Source of the DNA: CBDFMG01 sp965221205 [NCBI: bacterium]
Lineage (GTDB): Bacteria > SM23-31
DNA length: 64,000 nucleotides
Assembly (NCBI GenBank): GCA_965221205.1
Contig: OZ244870.1
Span: 3,286,001 to 3,350,000, forward strand
Direction of reading: 5' to 3'
The position numbers were made by a program, and so were the translations under genes. This document shows, piece after piece, positions 3,527-60,194 of the stretch (positions are counted from its first letter, which is position 1; each line of letters opens with the position of its first letter). The notes beneath the pieces are model-generated. The model did no database searches, was not told the DNA's origin, and saw only the letters and a list, made by a program, of their open reading frames with translations.

Positions 3527-4390
3527 TCAATAATGTGTAGTAGTCACGACTTGTTCAGACAACTCCACTGTTTTAGGCTGCTGTCTGTACGGTATGAGGA
3601 CTGTTTTATGGAAGCGCTCACATATACCATTACTCTGAGGTGAGCGGGCTTTCGTTTTGCTGTGATCGATGTTCTCAACGGCAAGATAGAGTTCATATTC
3701 ATGATGTTCTCTTCTACCGCAGTACTCTGCTCCACGACCGGTAAGTACCCGGAGTAAAAGGATACCCTGATCTTCGAAGAATGGTAGAACGGTATCATTC
3801 AATATAGCAGCAGCCACAAGAGCGTTCTTACGGTCATAGAGCGTGGCAAAGGCAACTTTGCTGTAGGTAGCAAGGCCTGTCTGCTGGTAGATTCTGCCGA
3901 CACCTTTGAGTGTGCCAACGTACATGGTATCCTGAGCGCCGAGATAGCCGGGATGCTCGGTCTCGATCTCCCCATGCGCTTCCTTCTCCTGTTTCGCACG
4001 CTCTAATGCCTGGAGTTGGTCCTCACTTAGAATAAAGTCCTCTTGTGCTGCCTGTGCTTCAAGAGCCTTCAGCAGTTTCCTGAAGGTCTCCAGATTATGT
4101 CTGAGCCAGACACTTCTGACCCAACCCGGTGAAATGAATTGACCCTCTTTCTTCAGCTCGCTCGATACACGGTTCTTGTGGCAGGGTTTGCGGCGGCTGA
4201 TCTCCTGAAGAGCTTGTTCTCTGCCTTCATCATACAACTCTTTGAACCGGTAAAAGCTGTCCCGGGAGTATCCAAACAGCTTACATGCCTGGGAAATGTT
4301 ACATCACTGCTTGGCGAGTTCTAACAGACCCACTTTGTTCTTGATGATCGTCTCTTCTACTGTCAGCTCTCCACTTCTCCTTTCTACAAC
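3527..4390 (-). pseudogene. IS481-family transposase, broken
   Basis: The frame reads an N-terminal helix-turn-helix (NISQACKLFGYSRDSFYRFK) and part of a DDE integrase core (RVLTGRGAEYCG, then KARSPQSNGICERFHKT). A TGA stop interrupts it just before the NISQACK block, and the C-terminus ends early (ELSEQVVTTTHY) instead of with the usual RPHQG tail. The second catalytic position reads GRGAEY where active copies have DRGTEY. It is therefore an inactive IS481 remnant. I could not define terminal inverted repeats. Confidence 0.8.
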
Positions 4391-24536: not shown

Positions 24537-24743
24537 TGAACTTCCCCCAAATTTGTGGACACAAGAAAAAGAGTGTATTTTATCTTTCAAGGAGGTGTTC
24601 ACATGTCAAGACGAATGGCCCATACCCGCGAGTTTAAGATTGAGGCAGTAGAACTGGCAACCCGAGGCGACAAGAGTATGGCTCAAGTAGCCCGCGACCT
24701 TAGTATCAATCCCAATGTGCTATCCACCAGAAACGCTACATAA
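24537..24743 (+). mobile_element. Left end of a second IS3-type element
   Basis: Starting TGAACTTCCCCCAAATTTG, the segment contains AAGGAGG and an ATG at 24603 that opens MSRRMAHTREFKIEAVELAT and RGDKSMAQVARDLSINPNVL, the N-terminus of an IS3 OrfA. It breaks off at the recognition helix. This element differs from the one at 58954. Confidence 0.7.
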
Positions 24744-24833: not shown

Positions 24834-25709
24834 ATGAAAGCAATTGTATACACGAAATACGGACCACCCGATGTTCTTCAGCTCAAAGAGGTGGAAAAAC
24901 CTACTACCAAGGACAATGAAGTACTGATAAGAGTATATGCGGCAGCAGTTATAGCAGGGGACTGTGAACTTCGAAGTTTCAAATTCCCAATCTGGTTCTG
25001 GCTCTCCCTTCGAATATATACAGGTCTCATAAGATCAACAAGAGTAAATATATTAGGGCAAGAATTAGTCGGGGAAATTGAATCCGTCGGCAAAGATGTA
25101 AAACTATTTAGTAAAGGTGACCAGGTTTTCGCAGCTACCGCAATTGGTTGTGGTGCTTATGCCAAGTACAAGTGTATACGTGAAGAAAAGACGCTAGCAA
25201 TAAAACCGGCCAATATGACTTATGAGGAAGTCTCCGCCGTTCCTACTGGGAAACTTAATGCATTACATTATCTTAGAAAAGGAAAATATCTAGAGCGGAG
25301 AAAAAGTTCTTATCAATGGCGCTTCTGGAAATATAGGTACTTTTGTGGTGCAACTTGCCAAGTACTTTGGGGCTGAGGTGACTGGCGTGGACAGCACGGA
25401 AAAATTGGACATACTGCGCTCGATTGGTGCAGACCACGTCATTGATTACACTCAAGAAGATTTCACCAAAAACGGTGAAACCTACGATGTTATTTTTGAT
25501 GCAGTTGGCAAGAGTTCATTTTCACATAGTGTAAGGTCTCTAAAGCAAAATGGACCTATATCTTAGCCAACCCCCTCCTGTTACAGATGATTCGATGGCT
25601 ATGGACTTCAATGATAAGCAGCAAGAAAGTAATATTTGAGATTTCAAGCTATAAATTAGGAGATTTTTTGAATAAATTATTTTGTTGCATATATTGCTAT
25701 ATACACTAG
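24834..25709 (+). pseudogene. Zinc-type medium-chain dehydrogenase/reductase, broken
   Basis: The start at 24834 follows GGAGGA at seven bases. The N-terminal catalytic fold is clear ([40 protein letters not shown]). A frameshift near 25265 and a TAG in place of a glutamine codon lead into the Rossmann part in another frame ([33 protein letters not shown]). A further shift near 25556 gives [17 protein letters not shown], after which the end is lost. Family: quinone oxidoreductase-like NAD(P)H enzymes. At least three lesions. Confidence 0.8.
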
Positions 25710-25992
25710 CTTATATTTATAAATGTTGGAGTGATTTAGTAACTGACCTGAGAATTTACCTTCGGCACCTAATTTTAAGGGTGCCTGTACAGGAAACGGA
25801 ATATACTGCACACGATTCTCTAATCTTTTTGCCTGAAAAGTCAAGCTTTTTTGACGATATACATCATTTTTCTTACACAATCTCATTTAAACTCTTTCAG
25901 AAGTTTGATATGCGCAATAACGGATGGACATCATTTTTATTATAACTCTGTTTAAACTCTATTTTGTATAATTAGGACAAAGGAGATTTACT

Positions 25993-26562
25993 ATGCATAG
26001 AAGAGCTATACAGCTGTTGCTGCTCATCGGGATGCTTGTAATCTCATGCGGTCGGAGTTCGTCCGACACACAACCGGCAGCAATACCGGTACCCGGCGGT
26101 ATGGTAAAACTAACGGTCGGCGAAGACGCCCCAATGTTTACCTTACCAGGCACTCCCGATGGAAAAGAGATCGTCCTCAGTGACGTTCTGGAAAATAAAC
26201 CTGTGCTGCTTGCTTTCTTTCCAAAGGCCTTTACAGGCGGTTGAACCAAGGAACTCTCAGGTTTTGAGAGAGATATCCAGAAGTTTCTGGATCTTGATGT
26301 GCAGATATTTGGTATCAGCGTTGATTCTTTTGAAGACAATAAAGCATTTGCAAAAAGCATGGGTCTTTCGTATCCGCTTCTTAGCGATATCGATAATAAT
26401 ATTGTCGATGCGTATGGAGTTCTAAACGATAACGGAACCTTTGCTCTTCGGTCTTACTTTCTCATAGGAATGGACGGAAAATTGAAATGGCTTGCCGTTA
26501 ACCAGGGAATTATTCCGAATGAAACGGTTATTGAAGCATTGAATAATGCTCTTGGCAATTAA
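25993..26562 (+). CDS. Lipoprotein peroxiredoxin (PrxQ/BCP-like) with putative selenocysteine
   Basis: Read through one TGA (26242-26244), the frame gives 189 residues. The N-terminus is a lipoprotein signal (LLLLIGMLVISC, lipidated Cys19), so the enzyme should face the periplasm. The thioredoxin-fold core follows: GEDAPMFTLPGT, then FFPKAFTGG-U-TKELSGF, where U84 replaces the peroxidatic cysteine of the PxxxTxxC motif, and ALRSYFLIGMDGKL with the conserved Arg. Apart from Cys19 there is no cysteine, so no resolving thiol exists. A 6-bp stem with loop GGTTT follows the TGA. AAAGGAG lies seven bases before the ATG. The alternative is a nonsense mutation or a sequencing error of TGC or TGT. Confidence 0.75.
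26254..26270 (+). promoter_or_regulatory. Putative bacterial SECIS hairpin
   Basis: CTCTCA (26254-26259) pairs perfectly with TGAGAG (26265-26270) around the loop GGTTT. The stem starts 9 bases, and the loop 15 bases, after the TGA. Bacterial SelB elements typically have a short stem with a G in the first two loop positions, and the loop lies roughly 16-37 bases after the UGA. This one is at the short edge of that range. GGA/TCC (26250-26252/26276-26278) could extend the stem across an internal loop. Confidence 0.6.
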
Positions 26563-26597
26563 CCAGGAAAAATAGTATAAACAGAGAAAGTACAGAA

Positions 26598-26930
26598 TTA
26601 CATATAATCAGCCTCCTTTTGGTTTTTCATCATAGGTTCCTGGATTTTTAAATGTGGTACGGACATTATATTTCTTACATCTTGCTTAAAATCATTTTTG
26701 TCGTATTTTTCCCAATTATTAATTAATTCGATTTTAAGAGGATTTCCAGGTTTTGCATTGATAATTCTCCTATTAAGAAGCTGATCGATTGCATGACTAA
26801 ATAGGTCACGACTAATGCTACGTTTATCAGCATCTTTGTAAGTACCGAATTTCTCTATTATTCTCAATTACCCATACTTTCTCTTTTCCAACACGTTTGC
26901 TTAACAAAATACAGTAAACATGAGGAGTCT
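26598..26930 (-). pseudogene. Hypothetical gene remnant
   Basis: The downstream frame carries DLFSHAIDQLLNRRIINAKP and LKIELINNWEKYDKNDF. Upstream, in another frame, KTPHVYCILLSKRVGKEKVW joins it with one shift near 26865. No family is recognised and the 5' end is missing. Confidence 0.35.
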
Positions 26931-26948: not shown

Positions 26949-27164
26949 AACCTTCGGTATCCCGACGGTCACGAAATCGCGAACAACGACCACGTCATCA
27001 TTGGAGGCAACCTGATCTCATTAGAATACAACGTCTATGCCCCGGTACTCGAATGGGAACGAGGGAAAAAGGTCTATATCCCGATCGAAGATAACATTAT
27101 CATCACTAAAAACGGTACCGAATCCCTCTACCCGCCGATCACGCGGATTCTCCTGATCCGATGA
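26949..27164 (+). pseudogene. M24 peptidase-like C-terminal fragment
   Basis: DHVIIGGNLISLEYNVYAPV, then KKVYIPIEDNIIITKNGTES and LYPPITRILLIR correspond to the last 70 residues of the M24 proteins at 51410 and 52864, including both glutamate ligand positions (LEY, IED). No N-terminal part is present; the frame opens after a TAA at 26946. Confidence 0.7.
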
Positions 27165-27304
27165 CGATATTGTGATTGAAAAGAGTTATATTCCTGTCGG
27201 AAACCGTCAATAAATAGGAGTAAGTTCAATACCATGCAATTTATGGATATCTCAAAGTAACCGATGTTCCAACCTCCATTCTTGGACGGAAAAAGGCAAG
27301 AAAA

Positions 27305-28722
27305 ATGAAAAAAATGTCAAGCAGCAGCGTCAAAAATTAACCCGGCGTGAATTTATTGGCAGCTCAGCAGCAGCAGCAGCGTTCACGATTGTTCCAAGTT
27401 GCGTCATGGGACGGTTCGCACCAAGCAACAAGATCAACGTGGCCTTTATCGGCACCGGAGGACAAGGAACCGGTAATATCAGGAGATTGATCCAGCTTCC
27501 GGATGTGCAAGTGATTGCCCTTTGTGATGTCAATCAAGAAAGCGACTATGGTCCTTTTTACTACGACTATCCTACTGCGGGACTGAAACCTGCTCTCGAG
27601 AGAGTAAATACGTATTACACTGAACAAAGCAAATCGGGGACCTACAAAGGTTGTGCCAGCTATATTGATTTCCGTGAGATGCTGGAAAAAGAAAATGATA
27701 TCGATGCCGTGGTTATATCCACTCCCGATCACGTTCACGCAGCAGCATGTCTTGCAGCCATTGAACGAGGCAAACATGTGTACTGCGAAAAGCCTCTTAC
27801 TCATTCGGTTTACGAGACACGAATTGTCACGGAGGCAGCTCTTAAAGCTGGAGTGGCAACCCAGATGGGAAATCAAGGCAATTCCGGCGAAGGGATGCGT
27901 TTGACGGTAGAATGGATACGAGACGGAGCGATCGGAACAGTTCGTGAGGTCCACGCGTGGAGCAACTCAGGCGGATTGGAATGGACAGAACTGTCAAACA
28001 GACCCGAGGAGACGCCGCCAGTACCGGATACACTTGACTGGGATCGCTGGCTCGGTCCAACGCCGTACCGACCTTATCATTCTGCTTATGCACCATATAA
28101 TTGGCGTGGCTGGTGGAATTTTGGTACCAGTGCAATCGGTGATATGGCCTGTCATAACATTGATCCGGCATTTTGGGCCCTTGATCTGGGTGCTCCCACC
28201 AGTGTGGAAGCAAGTGGCACCAGATTGAATGACGAAACAGTACCCTCAGGAGCATTATACCATTACGAGTTTCCGGCCCGTGGAAATATGCCTCCGGTCA
28301 GTTTGAAATGGTATGACGGTGGATTGATGCCTCAACGGCCGCTGGAATTGGAAGAGGGCCGTAAAATGGGGGGAAACGGAATTTATTTTGTAGGTGACGA
28401 CGGTATAATATTATGCGGCGGCTGGTCCGGCTCTCCACGCATAATACCCGAGACAAAAATGCAGGCGTATGAACAACCACCTCAGACAATCCCCCGGCTT
28501 GAAAGCCATCATGGAGATTGGATAAAATTCTGCAAGGGAGGCAGTCCCACCAGCTCGAATTTCGACTATTCCGGCCCATTAACCGAAATGGTACTGGTGG
28601 GCAATGTTGCGCTGCGGGCAGGTAAGAAGATATACTGGGATAGCGTAAACATGAAGGCAACCAATACACCGGAAGCGGATCAATATATCAAGCCTTCATT
28701 TCGGGATGGTTGGGGTCTTTAG
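27305..28722 (+). CDS. Tat-exported Gfo/Idh/MocA-type oxidoreductase
   Basis: A Rossmann start (NKINVAFIGTGGQGTGNIRR), HVYCEKPLTHSVYETR with the EKP motif and the GFO/MocA C-terminal half (WWNFGTSAIGDMACHNIDPA) are all in one frame from about 27340. This frame begins with a Tat signal, LTRREFIGSSAAAAAFTIVP, but has no start codon. The natural ATG at 27305 (MKKMSSSSVKN) is one frame off, and one extra A in the AAAAA run near 27333 would join them. Such proteins are periplasmic NAD(P)-dependent sugar oxidoreductases. The body is intact; the indel decides whether the gene is alive. Confidence 0.8.
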
Positions 28723-35740: not shown

Positions 35741-37285
35741 ATGATATTTTTACTATCTGTGATTTTCACTGTACCCGTTGCCAATGCACAACCTGGTATT
35801 CATACGGCAAAAACCGGTTCTGAAATTCTCCGGCTGATACGGAATGAAAAATTTGATCTTATCCTTCCGGGAGCAATGCGCGAGAATAATGTGGACATGT
35901 GGATTCACATCACGCGTAATGGAGACCCTGATCCATTAACTGAGAATTTTGGATTGATGTCCAGCTATCTGATTTTTACCGATCTTGGTAACAGGATCGA
36001 GCGGGCAGTGTTTGGTTCGGCAGGAACTGTTGAAAATGTTGACATACGCGGCTCCAACGAAATTTCAATGGCTATCGCAGGATATAAGTATCGAACGGAA
36101 GACTTCTCCGTTTACGACGAATTGAGAGATTTTGTTGCCGAACGCGATCCGCAGACGATCGCTGTCAACACATCCGATTGGCTCACTGCGGACGAGATGA
36201 CGTTCGAACAGAAAGTCCAGTTGAGGTTGGCAACACTCCTAGCCGTGATGACGTCCCTCCATCTTGCCAGGCGTGGCGAGAAGGTACGTCTCAAGATTGC
36301 GGTTGGCATCCGTCGGATAATTCGTGGTGACAAAAGTCCTCGTGAAGACCACGTGTGCTTCGATGTAACGAATGTGGGGGAACGGCCCGTAATCATCAAC
36401 AACACAGCAGGTTGGGTTGTCCGGAAAGCGGAAGAAGCGCAGGTACTGCATTCAGCTCCTATCGAATCTCTTGGCGCAGCAAGGCTCTTTTGAACTCACG
36501 CACGGGTAAAATGTCAAACTCACGGTTTCGCTGACCGAAGCGCCGAACTGGGTGAGGGATTCCAAGACATTCCTCGATGACACCTCAGGCCAGTCACTGA
36601 AGACGCTCAGGGCGCAGGTCTTTACATCGGTAGGACAAACCTTCGAAGTCAAACCCGAAAGCAAGCTGATTGACCGGCTTCGTCAGGATTGCTGAAAGAA
36701 TGGCGCGGCGGCTCGGATGACGGAGGGATGGCCAGGGCCGAGGGATGCAAGATCAGGACGCCCGGAGCCGTCGCGTAGTTCAACTCCGGCCAAGCTATGC
36801 GGTGGTCGTTGGCCTTGGAGGGGTGCAGACCGAATTGCAGACGGCATCTCATATTCTCCATACGTAAAACTGGAAAAAATATTAGGGCCGAAATACTCTG
36901 GTCGAATTGTGTCTGCTGAAAACGTGATCACTGATTTCAGGGCAAGAAGGATACTCAGGGAAGTTTCAACTATGATCAATGCATTGGAAGCTCATCGTCA
37001 AATCCTCGAGCGCTCTTTATCTCGTGAGGTTATCACACCGGGTGTTACTACTCTGCGTGAGATAGGTTGGTGGGTCCGAGAAGAACATCATAAACGGGGA
37101 TTAGGCAGGAGACATAATACTGGAGTTGGTATTCCGCATATTCTATATTCCGTAAAATCTGAACCTATTGATCCACCTTCTACGGGAGGTTGGATTTATC
37201 ACCCTGATTATGTAATTCAGCGCGGTGACTTTTTAAATTTTGATAATGGAGTTAGATATCTGGATTATTTTTCGACAGATTATAC
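35741..37285 (+). pseudogene. M24 peptidase-like protein interrupted by foreign DNA
   Basis: After a TGA four codons from an upstream ATG, a signal peptide (IFLLSVIFTVPVANAQ) leads into the family's N-terminal domain (LIRNEKFDLILPGAMRENNV, DMWIHI, IERAVFG, ERDPQTIAVNTSDWLTAD). At about 36192 an unrelated segment begins. The M24 sequence resumes at about 36837 with DGISYSPYVKLEKILGPKYS and VSAENVITDFRARRI, then REVITPGVTTLREIGWWVRE and GDFLNFDNGVRYLDYFSTDY. At about 37286 it changes again into a GH43-type sequence. Frame is kept across 35741-36493 only by chance. Confidence 0.75.
36197..36695 (+). pseudogene. Inserted conserved hypothetical gene, frameshifted
   Basis: The foreign block holds a whole small gene from ATG 36197 (MTFEQKVQLRLATLLAVMTS) through DKSPREDHVCFDVTNVGERP to, after one frameshift near 36490, VKLTVSLTEAPNWVRDSKTF and GQTFEVKPESKLIDRL with TGA at 36695. 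The DHVCFDVTNVGERPVxI pattern belongs to a family of hypothetical proteins I recall from phage-like and proteobacterial genomes. The block is GC-richer than its surroundings. About 140 bases of non-coding sequence follow before M24 resumes. Confidence 0.55.
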
Positions 37286-38556
37286 CCAAAGCACCAATAG
37301 AACGGTTGAGGCTCCTGCTGTTTTTGTATATCGAGACTACGTGTACTTTACAGGAATCGATGCCGGACTCTTTCGGAGCCGCGATCCGTTGGGACCGTTC
37401 GAATACTACGGCGATTTCAAGGACGAAGATGGTAAGAGTTTAAAGGATGACCGAGTCTATTTTTATTTCGCCGGGCGCTCAGTTAACGGGATATCTGGAG
37501 CCGAACTCGACAGTAGAGACGTGAGGAATTTTTTTTGTCCTGCCAAACGTTTCTTCCAGTTCGAGCCGTCGCATATCTGGGAACAATACGGCAACCGGCA
37601 ACCGGAATGAGTACAGCGGCGTGAGTTGGATAGAAGGGCCCTGGATGACCAAGCGAAATGGAATTTATTATCTTCAGTATACAGCCCCGGGAACTGATTG
37701 GAAAACATATGCTGTCGGCTTATATACCAGTAGAAATCCGCTGGGTCCATTCACGTACTACGAGGGAAGTCCTATCCTTGTTCATAAGAACTGGGGCTAA
37801 TCAATGGTATCGGACATCACAGCATAATTGAGGCTCCTGACGACACCTTATGGGCATTCTAAACCCTGCTCTACCGGAACTGGAACCGCTGGTTAGAGCG
37901 GGCGCATCGGTATGGATCCGGTTGGCTTTGATGAGCAGGGGAATATGTTTATTAATGGGCCATCGGAGATGCCGCAGTGGGCTCCAGGAGTAAAGGCCAA
38001 TCCTTGGGAAAACAATGATAGTGGGTCAATATCCTTGACGGAAGACGACAAGAGCTATGTCGTCAGCAGTGAGGCCCCAAGACGAAATGCACCCTATGCT
38101 TTCGATAATAACCTCAGGACCTGGTGGAAACCAGCTGAAAATGATACAGAACCCTGGCTTATCCTCGATCTTGGAGTCGTCACAGAGGTAGATCCACTTC
38201 AAGATTTCATCATTGACTCAGATCGAATCCTTTTCTCAATTCCACCAGAACGCTGGACAGAAACTAACGTGATCAGAACCAGGAAACACAAGATCGAAGT
38301 ATCATCGGATGGTGAAACTTTTCAGACTGTAGTAGACAAGACCGGGAACAACGCGGACAATGTTGTTGAATTCGACGATTTTGCACCGGTTCAATGCCGT
38401 TATGTGAAACTGACGATCACCGGATGGCCAAAAGAAGTGTCGTTCGGAGTGGTTGAGTTCACGGTCTTTGGGAAGCCAGGACCAGTTTATCCAGGCCGTA
38501 TTCCTCAAAAATATGGTTTTGGTAAGCCATCTGAGCCCGTTATCCCTAAACGCTGA
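37286..38556 (+). pseudogene. GH43-type glycosidase with C-terminal sugar-binding domain, broken
   Basis: The readable parts are APAVFVYRDYVYFTG, LGPFEYYGDFKDEDGK, then in a second frame SWIEGPWMTKRNGIYYLQYT and APGTDWKTYAVGLYTSRNPL. Next come GIGHHSIIEAPDDTLW and, from 37912, MDPVGFDEQGNMFINGPSEM. The last 180 residues form an F5/8 discoidin-like domain (PYAFDNNLRTWWKPAENDTE, PVQCRYVKLTITGWPKEVSF). Four frame changes and a stop occur, and the N-terminal catalytic Asp is replaced by the M24 join. GH43 enzymes attack arabinan or xylan side chains. Confidence 0.7.
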
Positions 38557-51232: not shown

Positions 51233-51409
51233 ACTCCGTAGAAACTGTTTTTCCGCACCATTGATTGGTACGTGAGTTCTCCCTGATTCACAGGAATCCT
51301 CTCAAAGAGTAAAAACCCTATGCCAATTTATTAAAGTAATAATCTTACTAATTAGATCAATGTTTCTAATTTGTTCCGAAAATACATATTGTTCAAAGGA
51401 GATTGTGTC

Positions 51410-52771
51410 ATGAGTTTAAAAGGATTATTGACCGTTTTTGTCACTTTTATTGTTCTTGTGTCCGGGATTGATGCATACGCTCAGAAATCAAAGCAAAATT
51501 ATGAGATTATGAGACTAATACGGCATGAGAAATTTAATCTGATTTTGCCCGGTGCTCTGCGCGATAACAACGTTGACATGTGGATTCACGTTGTGGAAAG
51601 TGGAAATAGGGATCCTCTCGCTTTAGATTTAGGGGGATGGTTTGAATATAGATTATGGGAACCGGTCGGTTATTATATATTTACTGACCGGGGTGGTGAC
51701 AGGGTCGAGAGGATAATCTTGGGTGGCTCTGATCGAGAAGGTCTCTACGATATTCGCGGCTCAGGAGAAGACCTGCTGAAATTTGTGAAGGAACGCGATC
51801 CCGAAGTGATTGCTGTCAACATGTCGAACTCGCTTACCATAGCTAATGGTCTTTCTCATACAGCATATTTAAGGTTAACTGAGGTATTGGGTGAAAAATA
51901 TACCGACAGACTTATTTCCGCAGAAAATGTCATAACCGATTTTCGTGTGAGAAGAATTCAAAGAGAGATTATCGCATTCGCAAACGCCGTTGAAATTCAA
52001 AGACAGATAATGGAAGAAGCGTTGCAGAATATTAAGCCGGGTATAACGACACGAGAAGAGGTCGGTTGGTGGGCACAGGACCAGCTGCTGGCACAAGGGA
52101 TCCCTCCAACGTATCAATCGGCGACCTTGTTTCTACCGTATATGCCGGGAGTATCCCATTCCGAATCACAAAACCAGTCAGAGAACAGGGCATTTCAGCG
52201 CGGAGATTTCTTGTCATGGGACATGGGCATCGGATACTTGAACTTTGGTACTGATATTAAGAGAAATGCGTATATTCTGAAGGAGGATGAGACTGACATT
52301 CCTGATGGGTTGAAACTCGCATGGGAACGCGGGATGAAGGGACGTGAGATTATTCGGAAAACTCTCAAGGTTGGCAAGAATACGGAAGAATCAGTGAATA
52401 ATATTGTTCGAGCTCTTGAAGCGGGAGGTTATATTTCAACTCCATCCGATGATAGAACTTCACAATACAGAGACTTGATGAATGCTCTCGGTGACGACGA
52501 GAGATCCGGATTCTCTCTCGGCCTCCACCCTACCGGCAACACCAGCGTGGGCGATGACGGAGCAGGTCCGTATATTGCCTTATATCGACCGGATCGCCAC
52601 CATTTCATGATTCAGCCAAATTTTATCTTTTCCTTAGAGTTTGTGATTAATACATGGATACCTGAATGGAATAGACGAATTAGTATAAATTTCGAAGATA
52701 ATGCAATTGTCACAAACAATGGAGTCGAGTATTTGTATCCATATAATGAAAAAATAATAGTAGTCCGTTAG
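51410..52771 (+). CDS. Exported M24 (pita-bread) peptidase-like protein 1
   Basis: The start at 51410 follows AAAGGAG at eight bases; an earlier in-frame ATG has no such site. It has 453 residues and a signal peptide (LTVFVTFIVLVSGIDAYAQ). The N-terminal creatinase-like domain reads LPGALRDNNVDMWIHV. The pita-bread domain has GITTREEVGWWAQDQLLAQG, LSWDMGIGYLNFGTDIKRNA with the first Asp, GLHPTGNTSVGDDG with the His, SLEFVINTWI and NFEDNAIVTNNGVEYLYP with two Glu. Ligand positions look kept, but the GH-rich active loops are unusual, so activity is uncertain. It is a tandem paralogue of the next gene. Confidence 0.8.
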   Translation: MSLKGLLTVFVTFIVLVSGIDAYAQKSKQNYEIMRLIRHEKFNLILPGALRDNNVDMWIHVVESGNRDPLALDLGGWFEYRLWEPVGYYIFTDRGGDRVERIILGGSDREGLYDIRGSGEDLLKFVKERDPEVIAVNMSNSLTIANGLSHTAYLRLTEVLGEKYTDRLISAENVITDFRVRRIQREIIAFANAVEIQRQIMEEALQNIKPGITTREEVGWWAQDQLLAQGIPPTYQSATLFLPYMPGVSHSESQNQSENRAFQRGDFLSWDMGIGYLNFGTDIKRNAYILKEDETDIPDGLKLAWERGMKGREIIRKTLKVGKNTEESVNNIVRALEAGGYISTPSDDRTSQYRDLMNALGDDERSGFSLGLHPTGNTSVGDDGAGPYIALYRPDRHHFMIQPNFIFSLEFVINTWIPEWNRRISINFEDNAIVTNNGVEYLYPYNEKIIVVR

Positions 52772-52863
52772 TATCGTTTGCACGTTTTTACGGTTGGATT
52801 TTGTTACAATAAATGCTATTGACATTCAGGACTATGAGCATATACAAATATGGGAGATATAGA

Positions 52864-54192
52864 ATGAGCACGAAACAGGTTTTTTGGACTTTGGTTTTAA
52901 TGGCCGTCCTCATGCTGAATGGGTTTGATGCATTTGCACAAGAGGCACGCGCGCGCTACGAGACGATGAAGCTGATCCGGCAGGAAAAGTTCGATCTCGT
53001 TCTGCCTGGAGCCCTGAGAGATAGCGACGTAGACATGTGGATCCACGTTATGCAGAAAGGCAATCCGGATGCGCTTGAAATGGATCTTGGCGGCAATGCT
53101 TCTTATAGTGTGGACGACACTCTGGGATTTTTCGTTTTTACAGATCGGGGCGGTGATCGTATCGAGCGGGCAGTTCTGGGAGGTCGCGCAGACCGGGACT
53201 TATATGATATTTTCGGGAAGGAGAAAGATATTACGGACTTCGTCACAGAGAGAGATCCGAAGCGTATCGCGGTCAATATGTCCGACCGGCTTCCCTCTGC
53301 TGATGGAATGTCCTATAGCGCATACAAACGATTAGTGAGACTTATTGGTGATAAATATACACAGAGGCTGGTTTCTGCAGAGAATGTCATTACCCTTTTT
53401 CGTGTAAGAAGAGTTCAAAGCGAAATCGAAGCCTTTGCGAAAATGTGCGAGATTCAAAGACTGCTTATGGAGGAGACCTTCGGAAGGATCGTACCCGGAG
53501 TTACCACGAGCGAAGAACTTGGCTGGTGGGTTCAGGACCAATTGCTTCTTCGCGGGCTTGATTCAGGAGACAGATCACCATATGGCCCGGTTGCACCGGA
53601 CAGCAGAGAAGGAGTTTATGAACGAGGACTATTTACGTCATGGGATTTTAAAATAAGATATTTGAATTTCGGTACAGATTACAAACGGAATGCCTTCATT
53701 CTTCGCGAAGGAGAAACAGATGTTCCCGAAGGGATTAAGCACGCGTGGGAACGCGGGCAGAGGGCACGTGAAATTCTCAAACCGACCTTAAAGATTGGTA
53801 TGACCTCCGGTGAAGCTCTACAGGTTATGATTCGTTCACTTGAAAGAGAAGGCTACGTCCACAACCTTTCCAATGATAAAGGACTTTACCGGATTAACAT
53901 GAATAAGTTAGGAGATTCCGAGCAGTCCGGTTTCACAATCGACTGTCATGCGATGGGCAACACTGGAAACAGCGAAATAAACGAAGGTATATCTATAGCC
54001 GCCTACCGTTCAGGACGCGACCATTATAAAATTCAACAGAACAATCTCTTTTCCTTTGAATTTGTCGTAGATACCTGGGTACCTGAACTGGGAAGAAGGA
54101 TGAGTATTAATTTTGAGGATAACGCTATAATTACCGAAAAAGGTGTCGAATTTCTGTATCCGGTAAACAAAGAAATTATAATCATTCATTAA
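52864..54192 (+). CDS. Exported M24 (pita-bread) peptidase-like protein 2
   Basis: The start at 52864 (MSTKQVFWTLVLMAVLMLNG) follows GGGAGATATAGA; earlier in-frame ATGs lack a signal peptide start. The 442 residues match the preceding gene block for block: LVLPGALRDSDVDMWIHVMQ, GGDRIERAVLGG, VSAENVITLFRVRRV, GVTTSEELGWWVQDQLL, SWDFKIRYLNFGTDYKRNA, IDCHAMGNTGNSEINEG and NFEDNAIITEKGVEFLYP. It lies 92 bases after its paralogue. Probable metal-dependent peptidase or pseudo-enzyme in the periplasm. Confidence 0.8.
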   Translation: MSTKQVFWTLVLMAVLMLNGFDAFAQEARARYETMKLIRQEKFDLVLPGALRDSDVDMWIHVMQKGNPDALEMDLGGNASYSVDDTLGFFVFTDRGGDRIERAVLGGRADRDLYDIFGKEKDITDFVTERDPKRIAVNMSDRLPSADGMSYSAYKRLVRLIGDKYTQRLVSAENVITLFRVRRVQSEIEAFAKMCEIQRLLMEETFGRIVPGVTTSEELGWWVQDQLLLRGLDSGDRSPYGPVAPDSREGVYERGLFTSWDFKIRYLNFGTDYKRNAFILREGETDVPEGIKHAWERGQRAREILKPTLKIGMTSGEALQVMIRSLEREGYVHNLSNDKGLYRINMNKLGDSEQSGFTIDCHAMGNTGNSEINEGISIAAYRSGRDHYKIQQNNLFSFEFVVDTWVPELGRRMSINFEDNAIITEKGVEFLYPVNKEIIIIH

Positions 54193-57851: not shown

Positions 57852-58490
57852 TAGGTGCAAAACAAAGCATCCTAAGAGGCAGTTCAACATCAAGGTCGGC
57901 ACGATCTTTGAAGGATCGCCGATCAAGCTGTCTAAGTGGATGTGTGCAGTCTGGATGCTTACCAGCTGCAAAAACGGCGTTTCGTCTTACGAAATCCATC
58001 GCGCCCTCGGCGTCACACAGAAGACCGCATGATTCATGCTTCAGCGAAGCGGCAAAGCTCGCAACATGCATAAGGATAAGCGTGCACAAAAAAGACCACC
58101 GGGACCGGTGACAAGGACAGGACTATTGTCTTCGGAATGCTCGAACGTGGGGGACAGGCCAAGGCGACCGTTCTTGAAAACCGGAAACGTACCGCCCTGC
58201 ATGCGCAGATCCACAAGCATGTCAAGGCTGGCTCCCGTATCTTCAGTGATGAGTTGAAGTCCTACGACGGACTGGCGACAGACTACGAACACGCTGTCAT
58301 CAATCACGCTGACGAGTACATCAATGGCAGTGTTCACACGAACGGAATGGAAAATTTCTGGTTGCTCCTGAAGCGCGGTATTCGCGGAACGTACGTCTCC
58401 ATTTGTATCGCTACCTCGACGAACAATGCTTTCGTTTCAATTTTCGTGCTGAACTGATCGGCAAGGACGGCAAAAAACAAGCCGTCGTCT
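57852..58490 (+). pseudogene. IS1595-family transposase remnant
   Basis: It reads CKTKHPKRQFNIKVGTIFEG, LSKWMCAVWMLTSCKNGVSS and YEIHRALGVTQKTAWFML, then KARNMHKDKRAQK, MLERGGQAKATVLENRKR, GSRIFSDELKSYDGLATDYE and VHTNGMENFWLLLKRGIRGT. Frame changes at about 58070, 58130 and 58405 and the missing N-terminal zinc ribbon show it is dead. It has replaced the first half of hsdM. Confidence 0.8.
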
Positions 58491-58669
58491 AAGCGCACCC
58501 TCGACAGAAACGCGGGAAGCGTGGAAGGCTTAACGGCTTTCCGCCCTTTCTTTGTTTTCTCTTCAGTGGAGATCCGCCGCTGCAACTCTTCATACGACAC
58601 GCCAAGTAACTTCTTCACTGCGGCGTCGAAGCGGGAGAACTCCGTTCTACCCTTGGCGGTGATCTTCAT
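58334..58669 (-). CDS. Hypothetical protein, second of a coupled pair
   Basis: The N-terminal 45-55 residues (MKITAKGRTEFSRFDAAVKK, LLGVSYEELQRRISTEEK) look like a conserved small DNA-associated protein; the remainder is antisense to the IS1595 remnant and probably not native. Its ATG overlaps the stop of the upstream gene (ATGA), which indicates translational coupling. Toxin-antitoxin-like arrangement is possible but unproven. Confidence 0.45.
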   Translation of the reverse strand: MKITAKGRTEFSRFDAAVKKLLGVSYEELQRRISTEEKTKKGRKAVKPSTLPAFLSRVRLDDGLFFAVLADQFSTKIETKALFVEVAIQMETYVPRIPRFRSNQKFSIPFV

Positions 58670-58952
58670 TCCAAGCTGCAGACTTCCGAGTACAGAGCCT
58701 GCAACAAGTCATCCGACATATCAACAATCGGCTCGTACATGAATGCATTTAGGTGGATGTTCTCCGGTGTCATCAATACAACCTTCCTCAGAATCTTTAT
58801 CGACTCAAGGAAGTCAGCCTTCTCTTTATCTATGTCGGTGTGTAGCTTCACGTATTCCTTTCGGAGGGTGTTGTTCACAAGAAGAGTTGATGCTTTCTCA
58901 GCATGGCCGAAGAATTCGTCATAAGGTGGTATGACGAAAACGCTTTCTTTCG
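58666..58952 (-). pseudogene. Hypothetical gene cut by the IS3 element
   Basis: The frame ESVFVIPPYDEFFGHAEKAS, KADFLESIKILRKVVLMTPE and DLLQALYSEVCSLE is open into the IS3 left end, so the native start has been lost to the insertion. The protein is acidic and helical with no recognised family. It is the first gene of a two-gene unit with 58334-58669. Confidence 0.5.
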
Positions 58953-59028: not shown

Positions 59029-59316
59029 ATGGCACGTAGAATTCACACATCAGAACAAATTATCCACAAGCTTCGAGAGGCAGAAGTACTGCTCGCTCAA
59101 GGTCAGTCGGTTCAACAAGCTGCTCGCCAGATTGAGGTTACAGAGCAGACCTATTATCGTTGGCGAAAGGAGTATGGTGGTCTTCGGGTGAATCAGGCGA
59201 AACGATTGAAAGCGTTAGAGAGAGAGAATATTCGCCTGAAACGCCTGGTTGCCGAGAAAGAGTTGGATATTCAAATCCTCAATGAGACTCTGGCGGTTGA
59301 TGCAAAAAACTTCTGA
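59029..59316 (+). CDS. IS3 OrfA
   Basis: The 95 residues form a helix-turn-helix (QSVQQAARQIEVTEQTYYRW) and a leucine zipper (LKALERENIRLKRLVAEKEL). They match the IS407-like branch of IS3. AAAGGAG precedes the ATG. The frame ends six bases after a slippery run. Confidence 0.9.
   Translation: MARRIHTSEQIIHKLREAEVLLAQGQSVQQAARQIEVTEQTYYRWRKEYGGLRVNQAKRLKALERENIRLKRLVAEKELDIQILNETLAVDAKNF
59304..59310 (+). promoter_or_regulatory. Programmed -1 frameshift site between orfA and orfB
   Basis: AAAAAAC near the end of orfA (frame A AAA AAC) allows a -1 slip that continues LLSPAKRREVVQHLC straight into orfB. This is the standard way IS3 elements make their OrfAB transposase. Confidence 0.7.
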
Positions 59317-59336
59317 GCCCGGCGAAGCGACGGGAG

Positions 59337-60194
59337 GTGGTGCAGCATCTTTGCACGACTCTCGAGATCTCGCAGCGCCGGGCCTGTAGTGTGTTGGGAG
59401 TACCGCGCAGCACTCATCAATATCGCCCGATTTCTCCTGCGGATGAACCGGTGTTCGTGCAACGTATGGTCGAGTTGGCCACGCAGTATGGTCGGTATGG
59501 TTATCGACGAATTACCGCACTGTTACAGCCAGAAGGCTTCAAGGTCAATCATAAGAGAGTGGAGCGTTTGTGGCGTCGAGAAGGATTAAAAGTTCCCCGG
59601 AGGCAACCGAAGCGCAAACGGTTATGGCTCAATGACGGTTCGTGTATTCGGCTGCGACCTGCGTACCGGGATCATGTCTGGAGTTATGACTTCATGCAAG
59701 CACGAACCCGAGAGGGAAGGAGCTATCGTTTGTTAACAATATTAGATGAATACAGTCGGGAGTGTCAGGCAATTGTGGTAGGCAGGAGGCTGACTCACAA
59801 TGACGTCATAGAACATCTTGCAACACTGTTCGTGCAGCGAGGAGTTCCGGTTCACCTGAGAAGTGATAATGGCACAGAGTTCACTGCTCAAGCGGTCCGG
59901 ACATGGCTCATGCGCCTGGGAGTAAAAACATTGTATATTGAACCAGGCAGTCCATGGGAGAACGGGTATATTGAGTCGTTCAATGGCAAACTGCGTGATG
60001 AAGTGCTCAACCGGGAAATCTTCGATACCTTACACGAAGCAAAAGTGCTTGTGGAACGCTGGCGAAATGAGTATAATCATAAGAGACCGCATAGTGCCCT
60101 CAGATACCGGCCACCCGCCCCCGAGGCCGTTATACCACCGGATTCGGTCTCAAGGCCAATGGATAATACAACAATGAATATATCGATGAATTGA
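59337..60194 (+). CDS. IS3 OrfB transposase (DDE)
   Basis: About 285 residues carry the HTH_21-like region (RRITALLQPEGFKVNHKRVE) and an rve core with all three acidic residues: Asp in WSYDFMQART, Asp in LRSDNGTEF and Glu in GYIESFNGKLRDEVL. The tail YNHKRPHSALRYRPPAPE is intact. The annotated GTG start is secondary to the frameshifted OrfAB fusion. It appears competent for transposition. Confidence 0.9.
   Translation: MVQHLCTTLEISQRRACSVLGVPRSTHQYRPISPADEPVFVQRMVELATQYGRYGYRRITALLQPEGFKVNHKRVERLWRREGLKVPRRQPKRKRLWLNDGSCIRLRPAYRDHVWSYDFMQARTREGRSYRLLTILDEYSRECQAIVVGRRLTHNDVIEHLATLFVQRGVPVHLRSDNGTEFTAQAVRTWLMRLGVKTLYIEPGSPWENGYIESFNGKLRDEVLNREIFDTLHEAKVLVERWRNEYNHKRPHSALRYRPPAPEAVIPPDSVSRPMDNTTMNISMN

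What the first reader, a model, noticed from the sequence alone, without database searches (positions are those of the whole stretch)
25993..26562. Putative selenocysteine-containing lipoprotein peroxiredoxin
The only stop in a 190-codon frame is a TGA at the exact position of the peroxidatic cysteine (FPKAFTGG-TGA-TKEL). A perfect 6-bp stem with GGTTT loop follows within 26 bases. Apart from the lipidated Cys19 the protein has no cysteine, so it would be a 1-Sec peroxiredoxin without resolving thiol, anchored in the periplasm. Sec peroxiredoxins are known in a few bacteria; a lipoprotein PrxQ-like form in this lineage would be unusual. Peroxide reduction outside the cytoplasm would need an external reductant.
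Basis: partly seen in the sequence, partly recalled or inferred. Interest (0 to 1): 0.8.

Follow-up and report, generated by a model that had tools for sequence, protein, structure and literature searches.

The report
Selenium-containing lipid-anchored peroxide reductase
This bacterial gene very probably reads an internal TGA as selenocysteine at the active site of a membrane-anchored peroxide-destroying enzyme; selenium forms of this enzyme are already known, but this one has no second usable cysteine and so would need an outside helper to complete its reaction.

Summary
Window 25993-26562 (+) is an intact peroxiredoxin gene (PF00578) with a lipobox Cys19; its only internal stop is TGA at codon 84, the peroxidatic position of PxxxTxxC. 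Of the best 80 kept from 247 relatives in GTDB genomes, 70 have TGA at exactly that codon, 9 TGC and 1 TGT. A SECIS-like hairpin follows the Sec codon in 68 of 71 TGA genes (window included) and in 2 of 10 Cys genes. SelB passes its curated cut-off in 59 of 61 TGA-form genomes tested and 6 of 10 Cys-form genomes. The window's hairpins are stronger than synonymous codon choice predicts (P 0.002-0.006; 0.165 for a shorter stretch) but not stronger than dinucleotide shuffles. So it is very probably a selenoprotein of the known TxxU Sec-peroxiredoxin family. Distinctive: TGA-form relatives keep a plausible resolving Cys (U+4 in 38, near the C-terminus in 30), and this protein has neither, so it would be a true 1-Sec enzyme with an AhpE-like fold. 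The window's own genome is not held, so its sel genes, lineage and reductant are unchecked.

The parts
25993..26562 (+). Sec-peroxiredoxin gene (189 codons plus TAA), AhpC-TSA/Redoxin fold
   Evidence: Pfam PF00578 E 1.8e-33, PF08534 1.1e-22; AlphaFold2 mean pLDDT 85.4; PDB fold matches Bcp/PrxQ and AhpE
25993..26049 (+). lipoprotein signal peptide ending in lipobox VIS-C19
   Evidence: sequence; lipobox rule recalled, no predictor run
25979..25985 (+). Shine-Dalgarno-like AAAGGAG before the ATG
   Evidence: sequence
26242..26244 (+). TGA codon 84, read as selenocysteine (peroxidatic position; P77, T81 and R153 invariant)
   Evidence: 70 of 80 relatives have TGA here, 10 have a Cys codon; invariant columns in a 21-row alignment
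26254..26270 (+). hairpin 1, SECIS candidate: 6 bp, loop GGTTT (spacing 15 nt), or 7 bp with a G-U closing pair, loop GTT (spacing 16 nt)
   Evidence: the minimum-energy fold is the 6-bp form; bSECIS model in PMC13188914
26275..26292 (+). hairpin 2: 7 bp, loop AGTT, spacing 37 nt, alternative or additional SECIS candidate
   Evidence: -7.8 kcal/mol alone

Best explanation
The gene encodes a lipid-anchored extracytoplasmic peroxiredoxin in which UGA at codon 84 is decoded as selenocysteine by SelB and tRNA-Sec with a SECIS hairpin just downstream. Sec84 attacks the peroxide and becomes a selenenic acid. With no other free thiol in the mature protein (Cys19 would be lipidated), resolution must come from outside: a low-molecular-weight thiol, or a periplasmic thioredoxin-like protein fed by a DsbD/CcdA/ScsB-type membrane transporter, as described for the periplasmic peroxiredoxin PprX of Caulobacter. 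Shown: intact frame, TGA at the peroxidatic codon, conserved Prx residues, TGA/Cys exchange in relatives, Sec-site hairpins, SelB in relatives' genomes. Inferred: Sec insertion in this organism, lipidation, cell location, peroxidase activity, identity of the reductant.
For: 70 of 80 relatives carry TGA at the same codon, 10 carry TGC/TGT. Hairpin criterion met at 68 of 71 Sec sites (window included), 2 of 10 Cys sites, and 9-45 of 69-71 at 23 shifted positions. 40 of 70 Sec relatives but 0 of 10 Cys relatives beat synonymous recoding at p<0.05. SelB over the cut-off in 59 of 61 TGA-form genomes tested against 6 of 10 Cys-form ones (Fisher p 0.003, related genomes not corrected for). Window hairpins P 0.002-0.006 against synonymous recoding. 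TGA is not simply reassigned: 5 of 26 window ORFs checked end in TGA. The AlphaFold model matches M. tuberculosis AhpE, a 1-Cys Prx, at target TM 0.87-0.90. Envelope peroxiredoxin precedent in PMC5403849 (passage).
Against: The own genome is not held, so no sel gene of this organism was seen; the window itself holds no tRNA-Sec. Hairpin 1 in its minimum-energy form has spacing 15 nt, one short of the published 16-37, alone reaches only -5.9 to -7.0 kcal/mol against the published -7.5, and sits 6-8 nt closer to the UGA than in relatives (21 or 23 nt in 69 of 70). Dinucleotide shuffles fold as well and a 48-nt stretch is not unusual against recoding (P 0.165). The neighbouring alcohol dehydrogenase gene is broken, so decay occurs nearby. 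SelB was not found in 2 of 61 TGA-form genomes, and one TGA-form genome (G006) had no tRNA-Sec over the cut-off. No operon partner points to a reductant.
Confidence: 0.87

Rival explanations
1. The TGA is a nonsense mutation or sequencing error in an ordinary Cys peroxiredoxin, in a region where genes decay.
For: TGA is one base from TGC/TGT; the neighbouring alcohol dehydrogenase is frameshifted and ends early; transposase genes or fragments (by eye) lie in the window; dinucleotide shuffles of the hairpin region fold as well.
Against: The stop falls exactly on the peroxidatic codon, where 70 of 80 relatives also have TGA; no other lesion in 189 codons; hairpins exceed synonymous expectation over 60 nt.
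Confidence: 0.06
2. It is a real selenoprotein but not mainly a peroxidase: a thiol-disulfide or redox-sensing protein with a peroxiredoxin fold.
For: Prx-fold proteins of other function exist (the ResA model NF002854 also matches, 44 bits against a cut-off of 170); absence of any resolving Cys could limit turnover.
Against: The Prx catalytic set P77, T81, U84, R153 is kept; TxxU is the motif of Sec peroxiredoxins, distinct from the thioredoxin-like UxxC (PMC1088965, passage).
Confidence: 0.06
3. It is a Sec peroxiredoxin resolved by a dedicated protein partner (or between subunits) rather than by a general thiol or thioredoxin-like protein.
For: No internal resolving thiol.
Against: No dedicated partner gene was recognised by eye in the 25 commonest neighbour clusters of relatives or beside the window gene.
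Confidence: 0.1

Closest known systems
Sec-containing peroxiredoxin, TxxU motif (COG1225/PF00578); PrxU of Eubacterium acidaminophilum as type case (name from NCBIfam and reference list; identity of the two recalled)
   Same: Prx fold, Sec at the peroxidatic position of PxxxTxxU, Sec/Cys exchange among relatives
   Different: Lipobox and no second Cys; NCBIfam PrxU model NF040737 scores 58.7 bits against a cut-off of 270
TGA-form peroxiredoxins of Acidobacteriota, Gammaproteobacteria and one Hydrogenedentota genome found here (70 of L001-L080)
   Same: Motif AFFPKAFTxxU, N-terminal export signals by eye, SECIS-like hairpin; 37-50% identical over the best segment (all 80), at most 40% over the tree alignment
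   Different: 38 carry a Cys at U+4, 30 a Cys near the C-terminus; the window has neither. Their hairpin loop starts 21 or 23 nt after the UGA in 69 of 70, the window's at 15-16 or 37
AhpE, 1-Cys peroxiredoxin of Mycobacterium tuberculosis
   Same: Fold (target TM 0.87-0.90) and 1-Cys type
   Different: Cys enzyme, 31-32% identical in the structural alignments listed; cytoplasmic as recalled
Periplasmic peroxiredoxin PprX of Caulobacter crescentus (ScsB-TlpA pathway)
   Same: Peroxide reduction in the cell envelope using cytoplasmic electrons (PMC5403849 passage)
   Different: Not compared by sequence here; not called a selenoprotein in that passage
PrxQ/Bcp thioredoxin-dependent thiol peroxidase
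   Same: Best NCBIfam match, NF006960, 73.1 bits; top PDB fold hit by E-value is a Bcp (3hjp)
   Different: Below the curated cut-off of 140; no second Cys

Membership tests
Sec-containing peroxiredoxin (TxxU) | AhpC-TSA/Redoxin domain | tested here: met
   PF00578 115.5 bits, cut-off 26
Sec-containing peroxiredoxin (TxxU) | in-frame TGA at the peroxidatic position with Cys in homologues | tested here: met
   70 TGA, 10 Cys of 80 relatives
Sec-containing peroxiredoxin (TxxU) | bacterial SECIS: loop 3-9 nt, G in first two, 16-37 nt from UGA, MFE at most -7.5 | tested here: inconclusive
   Hairpin 1: spacing 15 in its minimum-energy form (16 only with a G-U closing pair), -5.9 alone, -7.0 with flanking bases; hairpin 2: spacing 37, -7.8; both together -15.0 kcal/mol. 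bSECISearch itself not run
Sec-containing peroxiredoxin (TxxU) | Sec machinery (SelA, SelB, tRNA-Sec, SelD) in the organism | not testable with these tools
   Own genome not held; no tRNA-Sec in the window
PrxU equivalog (NCBIfam NF040737) | score over the curated cut-off of 270 bits | tested here: not met
   58.7 bits
PrxQ/Bcp | resolving Cys 5 residues after the peroxidatic one (position recalled) | tested here: not met
   No Cys besides C19
1-Cys type peroxiredoxin (mechanistic class) | no resolving Cys in the protein | tested here: met
   AhpE chains have the highest target TM among the 50 hits listed
Bacterial lipoprotein | signal peptide with lipobox ending in Cys | tested here: met
   MHRRAIQLLLLIGMLVIS-C19 read by eye against a recalled rule; no predictor run, lipidation not shown

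The most novel reading that the evidence does not exclude
A lipid-anchored peroxiredoxin with selenocysteine as its only redox residue, which has lost both the U+4 Cys and the C-terminal Cys kept by its relatives and depends wholly on an external envelope reductant: a Sec variant of the AhpE-type 1-Cys mechanism working at the membrane surface.
Probability: 0.5. Interest if true: 0.45.

Novelty: new member of a known kind. Interest (0 to 1): 0.36.

Why it matters
A gene that looks broken is very probably a working selenoenzyme, and 70 relatives with the same TGA were found in Acidobacteriota, Gammaproteobacteria and one Hydrogenedentota genome. The Cys-less form would be a natural test of how a selenenic acid is recycled outside the cytoplasm without a resolving thiol. 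A gene caller that stops at TGA would cut such genes in two at the active site.

Tried and rejected
Own-genome check for tRNA-Sec: no genome held. Lineage, left open: best-scoring GalK hit 43% identical in 60 genomes of the Hydrogenedentota genome's phylum; the peptidase at 52813-54192 had no match at 1e-90 in 81 genomes of the Gemmatimonas genome's phylum (the tool warns that an empty answer shows nothing) and matched in 6 of 80 Acidobacteriota-phylum genomes, all six in one class of 9 genomes, best hits 52-55%; the DUF5916 protein is only 31-42% identical in those 9. The peroxiredoxin itself matched in 4 of those 9 at 1e-15, 35-40% identical and without stops. Only three phyla could be tried, because only they could be centred on. 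Viral contigs: no relative. Plasmids: 336 records, all under 60% identity; the active-site codon was not examined there. The tRNA-Sec model did not discriminate: over the cut-off in 5 of 14 control genomes and in 5 of 6 genomes tried, among them two Cys-form ones (G004 49.7 bits, G005 79.3) but not the TGA-form G006 (41.3; cut-off 47); three TGA-form genomes had 70.9-74.6. SelB was used instead. Operon partner: the script printed the 25 commonest neighbour clusters of 80 loci; by eye none is a thioredoxin or DsbD-like protein; they were not scanned against Pfam. Tree (quick method): window on a long branch (0.92) with no supported placement; row L097 was read on the wrong strand, so the tree and its count of state changes are not relied on. 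Other single-TGA frames: 25 in all, 15 outside long ORFs (this one included), none of the other 14 looked like a selenoprotein by eye, no family search run on them. TGA reassignment rejected. A consensus promoter/terminator scan of 25560-26900 gave nothing above shuffles. Papers: a search for periplasmic, peroxiredoxin, selenocysteine and lipoprotein together gave 4 papers, none on this subject by title; only the listing was seen. Searches were seen as listings, apart from the papers cited, of which passages were seen.

Full report
WHAT IS THERE. Window 25993-26562 (+) reads as a 189-residue peroxiredoxin if TGA at 26242-26244 is decoded. Pfam finds AhpC-TSA (1.8e-33, residues 42-166) and Redoxin (1.1e-22, residues 42-173). 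Residues 1-18 look like a signal peptide with lipobox VIS-C19 (by eye). C19 is the only cysteine. An AAAGGAG sequence at 25979-25985 precedes the ATG. The AlphaFold2 model, made from an alignment of 21 sequences, has mean pLDDT 85.4, with blocks under 60 only in residues 1-40, the signal and linker. Its best PDB match by E-value is a Bcp (3hjp); the AhpE chains have the highest target TM scores among the 50 hits listed (0.87-0.90).

IS THE TGA SELENOCYSTEINE? One scan of GTDB-representative contigs found 247 relatives, of which the best 80 were kept. At the aligned position 70 have TGA, 9 TGC and 1 TGT. The TGA forms are in Acidobacteriota, Gammaproteobacteria (Pseudomonadota) and one Hydrogenedentota genome; the ten Cys forms are in Acidobacteriota, Pseudomonadota, Myxococcota, Gemmatimonadota and Chloroflexota. 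The patterns used favour relatives that keep AFFPKAFT, and the other 167 relatives were not seen. In the phylum of the Hydrogenedentota genome a separate search found 8 of 68 genomes with a match at 1e-20: one with a single TGA, which is the genome of L080 again, and seven without stops. In a small class of 9 Acidobacteriota-phylum genomes 4 matched at 1e-15, all without stops.

SECIS. I scored a hairpin within the 60 nt from the Sec codon: loop 3-14 nt, spacing 14-37 nt, at least 4 bp, G in the first two loop bases. This is looser than the published limits (loop 3-9, spacing 16-37, MFE at most -7.5; PMC13188914, passages). It is met at 68 of 71 Sec sites including the window, 2 of 10 Cys sites, and 9 to 45 of 69-71 at 23 shifted positions. 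In a second test with spacing 15-37 and loop 3-9, 40 of 70 Sec relatives and 0 of 10 Cys relatives beat synonymous recoding at p<0.05. In 69 of 70 Sec relatives the best loop starts 21 or 23 nt after the UGA; in the window hairpin 1 starts at 15, or 16 with a G-U closing pair, and hairpin 2 at 37. The window's best hairpin has P 0.002 (spacing 15-37), 0.003 (16-37) or 0.004 (15-23), and its 60-nt folding energy P 0.006, but a 48-nt stretch gives 0.165 and dinucleotide shuffles fold as well (z -0.42, 55 of 200). Hairpin 1 alone reaches -5.9 kcal/mol (-7.0 with flanking bases), hairpin 2 -7.8, both together -15.0. So a SECIS is likely, but which hairpin acts is open.

MACHINERY. SelB (TIGR00475) is over its cut-off in 17 of 21 genomes (11 of 11 TGA-form, 6 of 10 Cys-form) and in 48 of 50 further TGA-form genomes: 59 of 61 against 6 of 10 (Fisher p 0.003, without correction for kinship). 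Of the 14 control genomes 2 pass the cut-off. Nine TGA-form genomes were not tested. tRNA-Sec was searched in six genomes only and the model rings in controls too; it was strong (over 70 bits) in three TGA-form genomes and one Cys-form genome, and not over the cut-off in the TGA-form genome G006. SelA and SelD were not searched. The window's own genome is not held, and the window has only a tRNA-Phe.

RESOLVING CYSTEINE. Of 71 Sec forms, 38 have a Cys at U+4, 30 have a Cys more than 85 residues after the U, near the C-terminus, and 3 have neither: the window, L019 and L021. L021 runs off its contig end, and L019 ends in a short tail unlike its relatives, so the window is the only Sec form with an apparently intact C-terminus and no candidate. 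P77, T81, position 84 and R153 are invariant in a 21-row alignment that includes three Cys forms. The mature protein would therefore be a one-Sec enzyme.

HOW IT PROBABLY WORKS. Sec84 reduces peroxide at the membrane surface outside the cytoplasm; the selenenic acid is then reduced by an external thiol or thioredoxin-like protein. The Caulobacter chain ScsB-TlpA-PprX shows that such electron supply exists in a bacterial envelope (PMC5403849, passage; the original paper was not read). No thioredoxin or DsbD-like partner gene was recognised by eye in the 25 commonest neighbour clusters of the relatives or beside the window gene.

KNOWN OR NEW. Sec peroxiredoxins with a TxxU motif are an established family: 43 genes in the Sargasso Sea set (PMC1088965, passages), 253 in the Global Ocean Sampling set (PMC2398784, passages), an entry of 12 in a table of the 2006 genome survey (PMC1794560, passages), and listed in the 2026 review (PMC13188914, passages). 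This is therefore a new member of a known kind. The lipid anchor together with the lack of any other Cys is the noteworthy variation. Word look-ups found no 'lipoprotein' in PMC13188914, PMC1794560 or PMC9312934 and no 'periplasm' in PMC13188914, PMC1088965 or PMC2398784; that does not show that such a form is unreported.

MAIN RIVAL. A decayed Cys gene remains possible, since the upstream alcohol dehydrogenase is broken, but the position of the TGA, the otherwise intact frame and the family pattern make this unlikely (about 0.06).

Noticed in passing
24834-25566: Alcohol dehydrogenase gene upstream (PF08240 N-terminal domain) is broken: the N-terminal half continues in another frame and ends early.
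   Followed up: partly
51371-54192: Two adjacent paralogous secreted peptidases (M24-type by eye, no family search run), with a further partial copy near 35741-37610 and what looks like a C-terminal remnant near 27010-27165. In 80 Acidobacteriota-phylum genomes the six that match at 1e-90 all fall in a single class of 9 genomes.
   Followed up: partly
27300-28722: Gfo/Idh/MocA protein whose Tat-like N-terminus (RREFIGSSAAAAAFTIVPSC) lies upstream of the first ATG of the listed ORF, with no obvious start codon in that frame.
   Followed up: no
59029-60194: IS3-type transposase pair in two frames by eye; other transposase genes or fragments by eye at 3527-4237, 24603-24743 and 58137-58742.
   Followed up: no
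L001-L080: TGA-form peroxiredoxins with export signals (by eye) occur in many Acidobacteriota and Gammaproteobacteria, with two different resolving-Cys layouts (U+4 or C-terminal); the isolate names suggest sponge and marine samples, which was not checked.
   Followed up: yes
L044 and 24 other gamma loci, downstream of the Prx gene: A conserved unidentified gene on the same strand follows the Sec-Prx gene in 25 loci, within 200 bp in 15 cases; further down, in 22 loci, lies a gene that by eye resembles a sulfurtransferase.
   Followed up: no
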